Source of the DNA: an uncultured Selenomonadales bacterium
GTDB lineage: Bacteria > Bacillota_C > Negativicutes > Selenomonadales > Selenomonadaceae
Assembly: GCA_937916025.1 (NCBI GenBank)
Contig: CALGGX010000313.1
Span: 1-5,069, forward strand
Direction of reading: 5' to 3'
DNA: 5,069 bases
Below are positions 1 to 5,069 of the stretch, in pieces. The notes under the pieces are model-generated. The model was not told where the DNA came from, did not search any database, and saw only the letters and a program-made list of their open reading frames with translations. Numbering within the stretch: the stretch's first letter is position 1; each line of letters starts with the position of its first letter. A program made the position numbers and the translations under genes.

Positions 1-722
1 GCCGTCTCGAATGCGTAATCGACTTGACCGTGCTCATTGAAATACTGCACGACATCGACATTCATCGAATTGATCGCTTCGTACGCGCCGAGTTTCTTTG
101 CCATGGCCAGTTTGTTGTCGTCAATGTCGATCGCATATACACGCTCAAGTCCTTTAGCTTTCAGGACTTCGAGCGTCAACATGCCGATCGTTCCGCAACC
201 GAACACCAGCGCGGATTTGCCGCAATCGATCGCGCCCGCCCGTTCGACTCCGTGAATCGCAACCGTCGTCGGCTCAATGCACGCCGCCTGCTCGAACGTC
301 ACGTTGTCTGCAATTTTTACGACATTCCGCGCGGGTACCGCGACGTATTCCGCCATCGCTCCCTGCTGCCGAGATCCGATGAATGAGTAATGAGTGCACA
401 TTGCCGGAAAACCCTGCTCGCATTCTTCGCAGTGTTGACACGGAACCAGCGGAGCCGCAGTCACTCGCTCGCCGATTTCGACGTCTTTGACGTTCGAGCC
501 GAGTGCGGCGATCTCGCCCGAGAATTCATGCCCGACCGTGATCGGGTAGAAATGCACTCCGTTATGGAGCACGCGCGGAATATCCGAACCGCAAATTCCG
601 CACGCACGCACTTTGATCAACACTTCATCGGGCTTGAGCTCCGGCACGGGAATGTCTTTATAAGTCAAAACCCGATTGCCCTCGATGACCAGTGCTTTCA
701 TCTTTGACGGGATGCCCTCCAT
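1..722 (-). CDS. gatD: Galactitol-1-phosphate 5-dehydrogenase-like zinc alcohol dehydrogenase (3' end outside window)
   Basis: Medium-chain, zinc-dependent dehydrogenase expected to oxidise a hexitol phosphate (galactitol-1-P to tagatose-6-P in GatD) with NAD in the cytoplasm. Numbering from the internal Met at 701: catalytic zinc ligands Cys37 in CGICGSD, His58-Glu59 in GHEF and Glu143 in IEP; structural zinc cysteines 88, 91, 94 and 102; Rossmann motif GCGTIG at about 168-173, followed by Asp192, which favours NAD over NADP. The stretch CGSDIPRVLHNGVHFYPIT closely resembles E. coli GatD as I remember it (CGSDLPRIFKNGAHYYPIT), which is why I prefer GatD over sorbitol or threonine dehydrogenase. 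About 233-240 of some 345 residues are present; the rest lies left of the window. Start: Met at 722 (MEGIPSKMKAL) has AAGGGG 8 nt upstream; Met at 701 has GGAGGG but 13 nt away. I prefer 722. The gene has its own promoter region and probably opens a polyol PTS operon. The exact substrate is inferred. Confidence 0.85.
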   Translation of the reverse strand, partial: MEGIPSKMKALVIEGNRVLTYKDIPVPELKPDEVLIKVRACGICGSDIPRVLHNGVHFYPITVGHEFSGEIAALGSNVKDVEIGERVTAAPLVPCQHCEECEQGFPAMCTHYSFIGSRQQGAMAEYVAVPARNVVKIADNVTFEQAACIEPTTVAIHGVERAGAIDCGKSALVFGCGTIGMLTLEVLKAKGLERVYAIDIDDNKLAMAKKLGAYEAINSMNVDVVQYFNEHGQVDYAFET

Positions 723-757: not shown

Positions 758-786
758 AATATAACAAAGGGCATGTCGCGAGCATA
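758..786 (-). promoter_or_regulatory. Probable activator-dependent promoter of gatD
   Basis: Minus strand: -10 box TATATT at 763-758. Exactly 17 bases upstream, at 786-781, the -35 position holds TATGCT, far from TTGACA. The transcription start would fall near 751, giving a leader of about 30 nt before the ATG at 722. The same TATGCT-N17-(-10) arrangement is found in front of the regulator gene, and in both cases a conserved element lies directly upstream. A weak -35 with an adjoining conserved element suggests that an activator is needed. Confidence 0.6.
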
Positions 787-820
787 GCGGGAAAATTGCC
801 TTTCAGATTGGAAATTTTTT
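781..820 (-). repeat. Copy 1 of shared 40-bp promoter element (candidate activator binding site)
   Basis: This 40-bp stretch matches 2874-2913 at 36 of 40 positions; the mismatches are at 788, 789, 791 and 801. It contains an imperfect inverted repeat: on the plus strand gaaaattgcc (791-800) and ggaaattttt (810-819) around a 9-base spacer. It covers the -35 position of the gatD promoter. Similarity stops sharply at both ends, which points to a selected site rather than a duplicated block. Binding by the adjacent PRD regulator is inferred. Confidence 0.75.
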
Positions 821-849
821 GCCTCGCCGGTCAATCGTTTCCGCTCGGC

Positions 850-872
850 AAAAAAAATGACGCTCGCGCGTC
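850..872 (-). terminator. Rho-independent terminator of the PRD regulator gene
   Basis: Read on the minus strand: GACGC, loop GCGA, GCGTC, then A and eight T (857-850). The 5-bp GC-rich stem closes a GNRA-type tetraloop, and the hairpin begins 25 nt after the regulator's stop codon. It separates the regulator transcript from gatD, consistent with gatD having its own promoter. Confidence 0.8.
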
Positions 873-897
873 GAAATCTATGGTAAGGAAATTACCG

Positions 898-2826
898 TCA
901 AAAACTCTGTTTGAAATCGTCGATGAATGTATCGTAATTCGGACAGTCGAGAATTTTTTTGACGCCGTTCTCTTTGACAAGATATTTGAACAGCTTCAGA
1001 AATATCGGCTCCCAGAGGTAGAACTCGCTCGTCGCAATGCTCAGCAGAAAAATCACCTGCACTTGATGTTCAACCCAGAGTATCGGTCGATTCAACACCA
1101 GCACGGAAATCGACGACACCGCCGCATTGTTGATCATCGGATGCGGGATCGCGACGAGATTGCCGATCTCGGTCGGCGAAGCATTCTCGCGCTCCATCAC
1201 CGATCGGCTCGCCTGCTCGTCCATCAACCCGAGACTCTCGAGCAGATCGGTCATGAAGTTCAAGATTTTTTCCTTCGATTGAAATTGCCTGCCGGTCACG
1301 AAACACTCGCGCCGAAAGAATTTGTCGACGTTCTGCGCGAAAATCCGCGTCGTGTTGAACAGTTTCTGCTGAATTTGTTTGATCTCATCCTCGTCGAGAA
1401 AATTCCGCACGATGACGAGTTTTTTGTCGGCGTCTTCAGACAGTGTCGGCAACTTGTCGCGCGGAATCGTACTGAGAATGATGTCGACGTACTCGAGATT
1501 TTCGCCCGCGAGTCGATACCCCGGCATGATCTTGAGCACCGTCAACAGCCCCTTGAAATATTCTTCGACTTTCGACTTCAACAAAATCGCCGTGCCGATG
1601 CCGCTGCCGCAAACGATATACGCCGATTGCCGACTTCGATCGGCATTGATGTTCATTCGAGTGAGTGCCGCGCCGAAGTGCACCGCGAGATAGCCGATCT
1701 CGTCCTCGCTGACCGTGAAACCTTCGGCTTCTTCAATCACTTTGACGGCGATCACTCCGATCTGAAATGCGAGCGGATATTCGTTCTTGACGACAGACAG
1801 CACTTCGTTACGGATGCGATTGCGAAAGCGAATGCGCGGGATCAATGCTTCCAAGTGCGTTTTCAAGCCTTGCCGGAGCGTTTCGTCGTGGCGGAAGTCG
1901 ATGCCGACAATCTGCATTATTCGATCGAGCATTCGCGTCGTCAGGTTCTGCACCTGCCGATTGATTTGACTGTTGCTCGGCACGTACTTGTTGCCGGAAA
2001 TGATGTGTTGCGCGATGTAATACAGCTCGTTCGACAGCACGTCGATGTTGAAGTTCTCGTAGATTTCCTCGAAAATCGCCGTCGACATGAAAAATTCGCG
2101 ACATTCCTCGAGCGATTTACTCTCGCGTCGAAGATACGTCACGTTATGTTCCATGCTCGCGCGCACGAGCGTGATCACAATGTAATCGATCAGCCGCTCG
2201 AGCGAGTCGTCGGTGAGCATGATGTCATACGACGACATAACTCGAATGATGATGCTGCGGAGTTTTTCGCTGTCGAGTTGCAACGGAATCGATTGCATGA
2301 TTTGCGCCTTCGATTGCGGATCTCGGAAGAGATGATCGGCAATGCAATGACGCATGTCGCGTTCGGCACCGTCGAGCGTCATGCCGTAATTCTTGAAATT
2401 GACGACGGCGAGATCGTAATGCTCGAGCAGGAGTTTGACATCGCGAAGATTTGATTTGAGCGTCGAAAGGCTGACGTAGAGCTCGTCGGCGAGTGTTTGT
2501 TGTTTGATCGGCTCGCCCAAAAATGCGGCTCGGATCAGCGCGCGAAGAATGAAATTCGTGCGTTCCCTGCCGTCGAGTTGAAAGGCACTCTTCATGCTGA
2601 GGAGGCTCTCGAATTTCACTTCGTCGCGAATTTTCAACGTGTAACCGATCCTGCGCGAGATGTGAATTTCTGCAATCGACATGGTGAGCAACGACATGAT
2701 CGCTTTGATATCGGTGCGCACGGTCTTTGAAGAGACGCCGCACAGTTTTGCGATTTCGCTTGCGACGATGCCGCCTTTGCTCTGTTTGAGAATCTTCAAG
2801 ATTTTCAATTGACGCTCTGTAATCAT
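898..2826 (-). CDS. PRD-domain PTS-regulated transcription activator (MtlR/LicR type)
   Basis: A 642-residue regulator that would couple sugar uptake through the phosphotransferase system to transcription. Domains in order: HTH_11-type winged helix at 1-65 (VASEIAKLCGVSSKTVRTDI); second, Mga-like HTH at about 90-165; PRD1 about 185-285; PRD2 about 295-392; EIIB (Gat-like) 400-490 with the CGSGIGTA loop, phospho-acceptor Cys406; EIIA 500-642 with VAIPHP, His562. PRD2 keeps both histidines (His324, His383) and PRD1 keeps His274, but the first PRD1 histidine position is Tyr215 (LIDYIVITL). The N-terminus is a DNA-binding HTH and not the RNA-binding CAT domain of BglG/LicT, so it should act as a DNA-binding activator and not an antiterminator, although databases often label it BglG family. 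Start: ATG at 2826 has GGAGAGG 6 nt upstream; the in-frame ATG at 2841 would lie only a few bases from the predicted transcription start. The sugar is not known; the neighbouring gatD-like gene suggests galactitol or a related polyol. Confidence 0.92.
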   Translation of the reverse strand: MITERQLKILKILKQSKGGIVASEIAKLCGVSSKTVRTDIKAIMSLLTMSIAEIHISRRIGYTLKIRDEVKFESLLSMKSAFQLDGRERTNFILRALIRAAFLGEPIKQQTLADELYVSLSTLKSNLRDVKLLLEHYDLAVVNFKNYGMTLDGAERDMRHCIADHLFRDPQSKAQIMQSIPLQLDSEKLRSIIIRVMSSYDIMLTDDSLERLIDYIVITLVRASMEHNVTYLRRESKSLEECREFFMSTAIFEEIYENFNIDVLSNELYYIAQHIISGNKYVPSNSQINRQVQNLTTRMLDRIMQIVGIDFRHDETLRQGLKTHLEALIPRIRFRNRIRNEVLSVVKNEYPLAFQIGVIAVKVIEEAEGFTVSEDEIGYLAVHFGAALTRMNINADRSRQSAYIVCGSGIGTAILLKSKVEEYFKGLLTVLKIMPGYRLAGENLEYVDIILSTIPRDKLPTLSEDADKKLVIVRNFLDEDEIKQIQQKLFNTTRIFAQNVDKFFRRECFVTGRQFQSKEKILNFMTDLLESLGLMDEQASRSVMERENASPTEIGNLVAIPHPMINNAAVSSISVLVLNRPILWVEHQVQVIFLLSIATSEFYLWEPIFLKLFKYLVKENGVKKILDCPNYDTFIDDFKQSF

Positions 2827-2832
2827 TGCTAT

Positions 2833-2839
2833 CCTCTCC
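2833..2839 (-). promoter_or_regulatory. Ribosome binding site fixing the regulator start at 2826
   Basis: GGAGAGG on the minus strand, 6 nt before the ATG at 2826. It would be inside the coding region if translation began at 2841, and that upstream ATG has no Shine-Dalgarno sequence of its own. Confidence 0.75.
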
Positions 2840-2850
2840 ATCTGCTCGAC

Positions 2851-2879
2851 ATTATAATTTGCAAGCGTTGCAAAGCATA
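2851..2879 (-). promoter_or_regulatory. Promoter of the PRD regulator gene
   Basis: Minus strand: perfect -10 box TATAAT at 2856-2851, 17-base spacer, and TATGCT at 2879-2874 in the -35 position. Transcription would start near 2844, giving a short leader of about 18 nt. The geometry is the same as in the gatD promoter, so both promoters probably respond to the same factor (autoregulation). Confidence 0.7.
2858..2874. promoter_or_regulatory. Perfect 7-3-7 palindrome in the promoter spacer (candidate operator)
   Basis: TTTGCAA GCG TTGCAAA is a perfect inverted repeat lying between the -35 position and the -10 box of the regulator promoter. A dimeric protein bound here would block RNA polymerase. 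The gatD promoter lacks it, so it would act on the regulator gene only. It has an odd centre and lacks the WWNCA half of a CcpA cre site. The bound factor is unknown. Confidence 0.4.
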
Positions 2880-2913
2880 GTTGAAAAATTGCCGTTCAGA
2901 TTGGAAATTTTTT
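2874..2913 (-). repeat. Copy 2 of shared 40-bp promoter element
   Basis: 36 of 40 positions are identical to 781-820. The inverted repeat is cleaner here: plus-strand aaaaattgcc (2884-2893), 9-base spacer, ggaaattttt (2903-2912), 9 of 10 positions complementary. Its distance to the -10 box is identical to that in copy 1. Confidence 0.75.
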
Positions 2914-2921
2914 ACGCAATG

Positions 2922-2967
2922 AAAAATGGAGGCAATTCCATGCGGAACTGCCTCCGAATTTTTTTTT
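2922..2967. terminator. Bidirectional-looking terminator closing the mmd operon
   Basis: A 12-bp stem (2928-2939 with 2944-2955, one G-U pair in the minus-strand RNA) closes a 4-base loop. On the minus strand the stem is followed by A and five T (2926-2922), 28 nt beyond the mmdC stop. On the plus strand it is followed by GAA and nine T (2959-2967), so it could also stop transcription from the other side. It shows that mmdC is the last gene of its transcript. Confidence 0.88.
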
Positions 2968-3559: not shown

Positions 3560-3606
3560 AATTCGTAATTCGTAATTCGTAATTCGTAATTCGTAATGCG
3601 TAATTA
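3560..3606. repeat. Tandem heptamer array (AATTCGT)5-AATGCGT-AATTA
   Basis: Five perfect AATTCGT units (3560-3594), one AATGCGT variant (3595-3601) and a partial unit (3602-3606). It fills the space between the small gene's ribosome binding site and the inverted copies near mmdA. No open frame uses it. Array length is likely to differ between strains because such tandem units slip. Confidence 0.9.
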
Positions 3607-3652
3607 AACGACCGCCTCTTCATTACGCATTACGCATTCCTAATTACGCATT
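3588..3652. repeat. Inverted repeats forming two alternative hairpins between mmdA and the next gene
   Basis: The units recur inverted as ACGCATT at 3625-3631, 3632-3638 and 3646-3652. Two competing pairings result: a perfect 12-bp stem of 3595-3606 with 3641-3652 (34-nt loop), and a 17-position stem with one mismatch of 3588-3604 with 3622-3638 (17-nt loop). Both share the segment 3595-3604, so only one can form at a time. No T-run follows either stem on the minus strand, so they are not typical terminators; an mRNA-stability or translation role is possible. Confidence 0.8.
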
Positions 3653-3657
3653 GCTTT

Positions 3658-5069
3658 TTACAGCGGAATGTTGCCGTGTTTCTTCGACGGACCGCTCTCG
3701 CGCTTGCTCGCCAATGCATTCAATGCCGTGATGATGTAGGGGCGAGTCTCCTTCGGCTCGATTACCATGTCCGCATAGCCGCGCTCCGCCGCCTTGTACG
3801 GCGTTGCAAACTCTTCGACGTATTCTGCCGTCTTCTGATCTTTGTCGGGATCCTTGCGGAAAATGATATTCGCCGCGCCTGCCGGTCCCATAACCGCGAT
3901 CTCCGCGCTCGGCCACGCCATGACTTGATCGGCTCCAAGCTCGCGGCAGCACATTGCAATGTACGAACCGCCGTACGCCTTGCGAGTGATAACCGTGACC
4001 TTCGGCACCGTCGCCTCGCTGTAGGCATACAACATCTTCGCGCCGTGGCGAATGATGCCGTTATACTCTTGATCAACGCCCGGCAGGAAGCCCGGCACAT
4101 CGACGAGATTGACGAGCGGCAGATTGAACGCGTCGCAGAAGCGAATGAACCGCGCGGATTTATCGGACGCATCGACATCGAGGCAACCGCCCATGACCGA
4201 CGGCTGGTTGGCGATGATTCCGACGCTCCGACCGTCAAAGCGCGCAAAGCACGTGATGATGTTCGTCGCGAAGTGTTCATGCACTTCATAGAACTCGCCG
4301 TTGTCGACAATCGAGCGGATAACGTCTTTCATGTCGTACGGCATTTGCGGATTGTCGGGGACGACGGAGTTGAGGCTCTCGTCTTGGCGATCGGGATCGT
4401 CGTCCGTGTCGACGTGCGGCGCATCTTCCATGTTGTTGCTCGGCAGGAACGACAGCAGATAGCGAATTTGCTGAATGCAATCTTCCTCGTCCTCCGCCGC
4501 GAAATGCGCAACGCCCGAGCGAGTGTTGTGCGTCATCGCGCCGCCCAATTCTTCCGCCGTCACTTCCTCTGCCGTAACAGACTTGATGACGGCCGGTCCT
4601 GTGATGAACATCTGGCTCGTGTTCTTCACCATATAGATGAAGTCCGTGATGGCTGGGGAATACACCGCACCGCCCGCGCAAGGTCCCATGATAACGGAAA
4701 TCTGGGGAATCACACCAGATGCCGCCGTGTTGCGGAAGAAAATGCCCGCATAGCCGGAGAGTGCGTCCACGGCCTCCTGGATACGCGCACCGCCGGAGTC
4801 ATTGATGCCGATAAGCGGAGCGCCCATCTTCATGGCAAGATCCATGACTTTCCAGATCTTATGCGCATGTTTCTCGCCCAGCGAACCGCCCTCGACCGTA
4901 AAGTCCTGCGCATAGGCATAGACAAGGCGACCGTCCACCGTGCCATATCCGGTGACAACACCCTCGCCCGGCAGATCCTTCTTGTCCTGTCCAAAGTTCG
5001 TGCAGCGATGCTTCATGAACATATCAAGCTCTACAAAGGTTCCCTCATCGAAGAACATCTCAATGCGCT
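3658..5069 (-). CDS. mmdA: Methylmalonyl-CoA decarboxylase/carboxyltransferase alpha subunit (5' end outside window)
   Basis: Biotin-dependent carboxyltransferase that moves the carboxyl group of (S)-methylmalonyl-CoA onto carrier biotin, giving propionyl-CoA; the last energy-relevant step of succinate decarboxylation to propionate. The 469 residues present start RIEMFFDEG, so the frame continues past 5069; about 40 N-terminal residues are missing compared with the roughly 510-residue family. Numbering from the Met at 5058: N-terminal crotonase-like half with INDSGGARIQEAVDAL (85-100) and the oxyanion-hole region GPCAGGAVYSPA (125-136); C-terminal half with VDVPGFLPGVDQE (319-331) and the second oxyanion region RKAYGGSYIAM (359-369). 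The C-terminal KKHGNIPL matches Veillonella MmdA as I remember it. Glutaconyl-CoA decarboxylase alpha is less similar, and propionyl-CoA carboxylase beta is the nearest alternative. Base composition of the first ~470 bp seen (about 4600-5069) differs from the rest of the gene. The promoter lies outside the window. Confidence 0.93.
   Translation of the reverse strand, partial: RIEMFFDEGTFVELDMFMKHRCTNFGQDKKDLPGEGVVTGYGTVDGRLVYAYAQDFTVEGGSLGEKHAHKIWKVMDLAMKMGAPLIGINDSGGARIQEAVDALSGYAGIFFRNTAASGVIPQISVIMGPCAGGAVYSPAITDFIYMVKNTSQMFITGPAVIKSVTAEEVTAEELGGAMTHNTRSGVAHFAAEDEEDCIQQIRYLLSFLPSNNMEDAPHVDTDDDPDRQDESLNSVVPDNPQMPYDMKDVIRSIVDNGEFYEVHEHFATNIITCFARFDGRSVGIIANQPSVMGGCLDVDASDKSARFIRFCDAFNLPLVNLVDVPGFLPGVDQEYNGIIRHGAKMLYAYSEATVPKVTVITRKAYGGSYIAMCCRELGADQVMAWPSAEIAVMGPAGAANIIFRKDPDKDQKTAEYVEEFATPYKAAERGYADMVIEPKETRPYIITALNALASKRESGPSKKHGNIPL

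What the first reader, a model, noticed from the sequence alone, without database searches (positions are those of the whole stretch)
781..2913. Identical promoter architecture and a shared 40-bp element in front of the PRD regulator and gatD
Seen: 781-820 and 2874-2913 match at 36/40 positions, and each is followed by TATGCT-N17-(TATAAT or TATATT). Similarity stops outside the element, and spacing to the -10 is exactly conserved. The element contains an imperfect 10-9-10 inverted repeat (AAAAATTTCC...GGCAATTTTT on the minus strand). Known: MtlR/LicR-type PRD activators bind next to poor -35 boxes of their target operons. Inference: this is the binding site of the regulator encoded between the two copies, giving autoactivation plus activation of a polyol operon. 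It can serve as a query to find the whole regulon.
Basis: partly seen in the sequence, partly recalled or inferred. Interest (0 to 1): 0.7.

Follow-up and report, generated by a model that had tools for sequence, protein, structure and literature searches.

The report
Twin promoters for a galactitol switch
Two matching promoters sit in front of a sugar-alcohol regulator and the gene next to it, and comparison with relatives suggests that the regulator switches on both itself and the pathway through a two-part DNA address shared by many of its relatives.

Summary
781-820 and 2874-2913 match at 36 of 40; the best in 40 shuffles was 28. Both lie on the minus strand, 17 nt before a -10 box.

Relatives support the interpretation. 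The site precedes the orthologous regulator in 4 of 4 fetched loci from 3 Selenomonadaceae genomes, and in L003 also a gatD-gatA/B/C/Z/Y operon. A strict pattern built from these sites has no match elsewhere in 189 genomes, so in relatives it is not a dispersed repeat; the regulon appears to be the regulator gene plus the adjacent gat operon.

The conserved address is TTTCC-N9-GG(N)AA, 8 nt, CTATG, 17 nt, -10. CTATG replaces the -35 box and marks a larger clade of PRD regulators: 34 of 48 with its Mga-HTH helix type have it, against 1 of 30 others; in loci fetched after the idea arose, 6 of 16 against 0 of 8. I infer a class II, self-activating PRD activator like Bacillus MtlR, with a different operator and -35 element. 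Binding and activation are untested.

The parts
2874..2913 (-). 40-bp element before the regulator; conserved core TTTCC-N9-GGCAA-N8-CTATG at 2907-2876
   Evidence: conserved before the orthologous gene in L001-L004
2876..2880 (-). CTATG at the -35 position of the regulator promoter
2851..2856 (-). -10 box TATAAT of the regulator promoter, 17 nt after TATGCT
898..2826 (-). PRD regulator gene (HTH_11, Mga HTH, PRD, PRD, EIIB-like, EIIA-like); the longest ORF starts at 2841
781..820 (-). 40-bp element before gatD; core TTTCC-N9-GGCAA-N8-CTATG at 814-783
783..787 (-). CTATG at the -35 position of the gatD promoter
758..763 (-). -10 box TATATT of the gatD promoter (preceded by TGT, the extended -10 form)
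3..722 (-). gatD, galactitol-1-phosphate 5-dehydrogenase-like, cut by the window end
   Evidence: best NCBIfam match NF007642, 235.7 bits, below its 550 cut-off on this partial protein
2928..2955 (-). terminator-like hairpin (12-pair stem) after the mmd genes, ending 14 nt before the regulator element

Best explanation
The two 40-bp elements are operators of the PRD regulator encoded between them, which I call a GatR-type activator. Shown: two promoters with the same dyad, the same CTATG at the -35 position and the same 17-nt spacing to a -10 box; the arrangement recurs in relatives, also where gene order is swapped. Inferred: the regulator binds as a dimer to TTTCC-N9-GG(N)AA centred near -54 and contacts CTATG, so that it places sigma-A RNA polymerase on a promoter without a usable -35 box (class II activation). 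PTS phosphorylation of its PRD, EIIB-like and EIIA-like domains sets activity, so uptake of galactitol (or a related polyol) turns on both the regulator gene and the gatD/PTS operon. Also inferred, with less certainty: HTH_11 reads the dyad and the Mga-type HTH reads CTATG.
For: Element before the orthologous regulator in 4 of 4 fetched loci (3 genomes) and again before gatDA-gatB-gatC-gatZ-gatY in L003. Strict pattern: 5 hits in 189 genomes, all at these genes, 0 in control. In G046, G049, G051 and G052 both gatD and the regulator carry a site although gatD there precedes the regulator; in G047 and G048 one site precedes a gatD-regulator operon. Conservation among five promoters peaks in the site and is 0.23-0.36 in the three blocks furthest upstream. 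Unbiased count: CTATG-N19-TANNNT in 21 of 31 upstream regions, next pentamer 5, CTATG at most 2 in 100 shuffle rounds; spacing 17 in those 21. Mga-helix type and CTATG: 34 of 48 against 1 of 30. Five likely phospho-acceptors H279, H329, H388, C411 and H567 present. Model puts residues 38-51 and 125-140 in the third helix of each winged HTH. Known parallel: B. subtilis PmtlA and PmtlR share a 42-bp operator 7 bp from -35 and MtlR induces its own gene (PMC3217849, passages).
Against: No binding, transcription start or expression data. The window's own genome is not held, so other copies in it are unknown. The window ends inside gatD, so the PTS genes are seen only in relatives. The strict pattern was built from the sites it finds. 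14 of 48 regulators of the right helix type lack exact CTATG; 8 of those 14 have CT[AG][TG][GA] at the same place, but that pattern was chosen after seeing them. The helix rule was set on the first loci: there 28 of 32 against 1 of 22, but in loci fetched afterwards only 6 of 16 against 0 of 8, p 0.07. It also follows clade structure. The first PRD1 histidine is Tyr (Y220) in the window. The strict site is absent from 186 of 189 family genomes, so this subtype is rare.
Confidence: 0.85

Rival explanations
1. A dispersed repeat or a recent copy of one promoter segment, with no regulator-specific role.
For: Within the window the copies are 36 of 40 identical, and the window's own genome could not be scanned.
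Against: 5 hits in 189 genomes, all at these genes; in L003 the two sites differ widely outside the core yet keep TTTCC, TCTG, GG(N)AA, CTATG and N17; G046, G049, G051 and G052 have paired sites with unlike centres.
Confidence: 0.03
2. CTATG and the dyad are recognised by RNA polymerase or a general factor, and the PRD regulator acts elsewhere or only represses.
For: CTATG sits exactly in the -35 slot at 17 nt from -10.
Against: CTATG-N19-TATAAT is not a general promoter class: 56 hits against 48 reversed-control hits in 17 genomes. In three genomes that use CTATG at other PRD regulators, a regulator with another Mga helix lacks it: L163 (G051), L165 (G052), L164 (G030); L163 and L165 are near-identical, so two cases. 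TATGCT matches TTGACA at 2 of 6 positions.
Confidence: 0.07
3. RNA-level control by antitermination (BglG/LicT type), with the inverted repeat as an RNA hairpin.
For: The protein has two PRDs, and some plasmid records call such relatives BglG family antiterminators.
Against: The element lies upstream of the -10 box and would not be transcribed from it; the protein has HTH_11 and Mga HTH matches and no RNA-binding CAT domain in its Pfam list; no Rfam hit in the window.
Confidence: 0.02

Closest known systems
Bacillus subtilis MtlR with PmtlA and PmtlR (PMC3217849, passages; domain and phosphosite positions from PMC8560693, passages)
   Same: Same domain order; regulator activates its own gene and a polyol PTS operon; one shared 42-bp operator 7 bp from -35; proposed class II activator touching sigma region 4.
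   Different: MtlR box is TTGTCA...TGCCAA (PMC10992428, passages) and the -35 boxes are TTGTAT and TTGATT. Here the dyad is TTTCC-N9-GG(N)AA, its centre is 19 bp from the -35 hexamer (about 28 bp in PmtlA by my count from primer sequences in PMC3217849), and CTATG replaces the -35 box.
Mga/AtxA group of PRD regulators (PMC8560693, passages; fold matches 4r6i, 3sqn, 5way, 9atx)
   Same: HTH_11 plus Mga HTH plus two PRDs plus EIIB-like domain; the Mga HTH is reported as essential for DNA binding.
   Different: That review says these regulators lack the EIIA-like domain and that their sites share little sequence; here the sites follow a clear two-part rule. Membership in that group is not claimed.
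Galactitol (gat) operons with a PTS, dehydrogenase and tagatose-bisphosphate aldolase
   Same: gatD, gatA, gatB, gatC, gatZ and gatY beside the regulator in L003; gatD, gatA, gatB, gatC and gatY beside the 41-48% identical regulators of six genomes.
   Different: From recall, the E. coli gat operon is controlled by a DeoR-type repressor; here a PRD regulator sits inside the locus.

Membership tests
MtlR/LicR-type PRD transcriptional activator | Domain order HTH_11, Mga HTH, PRD, PRD, EIIB-like, EIIA-like | tested here: met
   (all above Pfam cut-offs; PRD matched in two stretches)
MtlR/LicR-type PRD transcriptional activator | Six phospho-acceptor residues (MtlR H230, H289, H342, H399, C419, H599) | tested here: inconclusive
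   mapped by domain motif, MtlR itself was not aligned: H279, H329, H388, C411, H567 present; the first PRD1 histidine is Y220 in the window
MtlR/LicR-type PRD transcriptional activator | Gene beside a PTS operon | tested here: met
   gat PTS genes in L003 and in the loci of G046, G047, G048, G049, G051 and G052; the window itself ends inside gatD
MtlR/LicR-type PRD transcriptional activator | Binds an inverted repeat just upstream of -35 and activates | not testable with these tools
   position and conservation fit; no binding data
B. subtilis MtlR operator type | TTGTCA-spacer-TGCCAA box and near-consensus -35 | tested here: not met
   the two sites read TTTCC-N9-GGCAA and CTATG
BglG/LicT antiterminator | CAT RNA-binding domain and a transcribed RNA target | tested here: not met
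   no such Pfam hit, element upstream of -10, no Rfam hit
Dispersed repeat | Many copies at unrelated places | tested here: not met
   in relatives: 5 hits in 189 genomes, all at the regulator or gat operon; the window's own genome is not available

The most novel reading that the evidence does not exclude
A clade of PRD activators, seen here in Selenomonadaceae and a neighbouring order, reads a modular two-part address: HTH_11 reads the variable dyad and the Mga-type HTH reads a nearly constant motif, mostly CTATG with CTGGA, CTAGG and CTAGA as variants, that has taken over the -35 slot, so the activator itself supplies -35 recognition. Dyad and -35 motif could then be predicted from two recognition helices, giving a way into the unsolved DNA specificity of Mga-like regulators.
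Probability: 0.3. Interest if true: 0.65.

Novelty: new variant of a known kind. Interest (0 to 1): 0.5.

Why it matters
It gives a predicted operator and regulon for PRD regulators in Selenomonadaceae of ruminant guts; I saw no description of it in the listings of my literature searches (open-licence papers only). More broadly, a review of the related Mga-like regulators says their binding sites lack shared sequence (PMC8560693, passages). Here the sites of many, not all, relatives down to about 31% identity follow one rule, with one part that varies by regulator and one that mostly stays, which makes domain-by-domain specificity testable by helix swaps in a laboratory reporter strain.

Tried and rejected
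Dispersed repeat: rejected for the relatives. General promoter class CTATG-N19-TATAAT: not enriched, 56 hits against 48 in the control. RNA element: no Rfam hit at gathering score in the window or in L001-L004. Possible cre-like palindrome TTGCAAGCGTTGCAA in the spacer of the regulator promoter: 12 of 15 to the consensus quoted in PMC3217849, absent from the spacers of the gatD promoter and of the L001-L004 sites by eye, so not used. A palindromic site with CATAG mirrored on the left (L034, L035) looked like a clue to symmetric contact, but I saw no left CATAG in the few other sites I checked by eye. The plasmid search listed only relatives of at most 30% identity and was not followed. Literature on gat operons with PRD regulators or on CTATG in PTS promoters: nothing relevant in the listings. 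The PDB sequence search gave only weak domain hits.

Full report
Observation. The window holds, on the minus strand, mmdA (5058-3658, cut), a small ORF at 3546-3403, mmdC (about 3373-2984), a terminator-like hairpin at 2955-2928, a PRD regulator and a cut gatD at 722-3. The repeat 781-820 / 2874-2913 is real: 36 of 40, best in the window, 28 at most in 40 shuffles. Each copy ends in CTATGCT, which lies 17 nt before TATAAT (2856-2851) or TATATT (763-758).

Conservation. One search found 4 loci with the orthologous regulator (68-74% identity), in Selenomonadaceae MAGs from goat, sheep and red deer; L001 and L002 lie in one genome. All 4 carry the element before the regulator, and L003 has a second copy before the next operon. 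The seven sites, window included, share TTTCC-N2-TCTG-N3-GG(N)AA-N8-CTATG. Ungapped column identity over five regulator promoters (L002 and L003 nearly identical here) is 0.36, 0.25 and 0.23 in the three 15-nt blocks furthest upstream, 0.45 in the next, 0.80, 0.67, 0.60 and 0.64 across site and promoter, and 0.47 after it. The L003 operon is gatD fused to gatA, gatB, gatC, gatZ, gatY.

Specificity. TTTCCNNTCTGNNNGGNAAN9TATG has 5 matches in 189 family genomes, in 3 genomes, all at these regulators or the gat operon, and no reversed-control match; allowing one mismatch in those 3 genomes added none. The pattern was built from these sites, so the evidence is the absence of others. The window's own genome is not held. 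The looser pattern TTTCC-N8/9-GGAAA-N8/9-CTATG has 31 matches in 22 genomes against 4 control matches. Of the 31, 15 lie before a PRD regulator or a gat gene. One more (L062/L135, G040) precedes a stretch that by eye reads as the first 16 residues of a PRD regulator and then stops. L042 (G038) is a related site without a -10 box at 17 nt. The other 14 show no such neighbour. All 16 linked sites have TANNNT at the 17-nt spacing, against 1 of the other 15 (L060), by eye.

Rearranged loci. In G046, G049, G051 and G052 the order is site-gatD-site-regulator-gatA-gatB-gatC-gatY; in G047 and G048 one site precedes gatD-regulator-gatA-gatB-gatC-gatY; G041 has site-regulator-gatA-gatB-gatC; in G034, G040 and G170 a CTATG promoter lies on both sides of the regulator. 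G478 and G259, from another order, have the site just before a gatD that is 67% identical to the window's.

CTATG. In 31 upstream regions (the window, L001-L004, L013-L031, L033-L039; with near-identical pairs such as L002/L003, L015/L016 and L034/L035), counting every pentamer 19 nt before TANNNT, CTATG appears in 21, the next in 5; in 100 shuffle rounds CTATG reached at most 2 and any pentamer at most 6. Spacing 17 gives 21 regions, other spacings from 10 to 25 give 0-5. In 25 more distant regions CTATG appears in 2. It is not a general promoter class (56 against 48 control).

Two-part code. I aligned N-termini of 80 regulators and dropped two (L132 frameshifted, L145 partial). Of 48 with the Mga-HTH helix type [SGA][LIV][ST][STA][LIVMF]K, 34 have CTATG-N17-TANNNT at their own promoter, that of the next gene, or within 1.7 kb upstream; of 30 with another helix, 1 does (L123, whose dyad is at a different distance). 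Three far-upstream hits (L034, L035, L156) were left out; each of these loci has a promoter hit anyway. Fisher p is 9e-10 without correction for relatedness; with one row per distinct helix pair the counts are 29 of 41 against 1 of 25. The helix rule was drawn from the first loci. Split by date of fetching, the first loci give 28 of 32 against 1 of 22, the later ones only 6 of 16 against 0 of 8 (p 0.07), so the independent support is weaker than the total suggests. Eight of the 14 misses have CT[AG][TG][GA] at the same place, a pattern I set after seeing them; 1 of 30 others has it. Same-genome controls: L163, L165 and L164 lie in genomes whose other regulators use CTATG, yet lack both the helix and CTATG; L163 and L165 are near-identical, so this is two cases. 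The dyad behaves otherwise: L109 and L110 have HTH_11 helix VSSRTIRSD and a TTTCC-GGAAA dyad (spacer 11), but a different Mga helix and no CTATG; L034 and L035 have VSERTIRRD and a TGTCC-GGACA dyad but keep CTATG. Against a strict code: L163 has a TTTCC-GGAAA dyad with VSSKTVRNLL; L030 has CTATG with no clear dyad; and several regulators with VSSRT-type helices (such as L024, L028, L148, L154) show a weak dyad or none at the sites listed. AlphaFold (mean pLDDT 83.7, pTM 0.58) puts 38-51 and 125-140 in the third helix of each winged HTH; the top PDB fold matches are Mga/AtxA-type regulators, with low TM-scores over the whole chain.

Mechanism. If the -10 box is at -12 to -7, the dyad centre lies near -54 and CTATG covers -36 to -32. 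This fits a class II activator, as proposed for B. subtilis MtlR (PMC3217849, passages). From recall, Mga sites are also centred near -54. PRD1 H279, PRD2 H329 and H388, EIIB-like C411 and EIIA-like H567 are present, while the first PRD1 histidine is Y220 (19 of 26 aligned regulators have His there), so control is probably by PTS phosphorylation with some change at PRD1. Galactitol as inducer is inferred from the gat genes.

Verdict. The wider architecture is the more interesting result. Residue numbers follow the 647-residue ORF from 2841.

Noticed in passing
L003:4800-6341; L001:12722-13333: gatD and gatA are fused into one ORF in L003 (dehydrogenase followed by an EIIA_2 domain); L001 shows the same junction sequence before its contig ends.
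   Followed up: partly
L001:11973-12725 and L004:2920-3726: After the regulator, where gatD is expected, L001 has an HNH/NUMOD4 ORF followed by a gatD that lacks its first part, and L004 has a GIY-YIG/NUMOD3 ORF: two homing-endonuclease types at the same place. No Rfam hit at gathering score.
   Followed up: partly
L135 (G040:C1 about 303,850): A site and -10 box precede what looks like a relic of a PRD regulator (16 residues, then stop); G038 (L136) has a decayed copy of the same site.
   Followed up: partly
window 3560-3661: Tandem TAATTCG/TAATGCG heptamers and an inverted copy (43-nt arms, 79% complementary) between mmdA and the small ORF; might be a small dispersed palindromic repeat.
   Followed up: no
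window 2859-2873: Near-perfect palindrome TTGCAAGCGTTGCAA (+ strand) in the spacer of the regulator promoter, loosely cre-like; not seen in the spacers of the close relatives by eye.
   Followed up: partly
L034 and L035, about 40 nt upstream of the regulator: The site is a long palindrome with CATAG mirrored on the left, unlike the few other sites I looked at.
   Followed up: no
window regulator residue 220: First PRD1 histidine replaced by Tyr in the window and in L001; 19 of 26 aligned regulators keep His.
   Followed up: no
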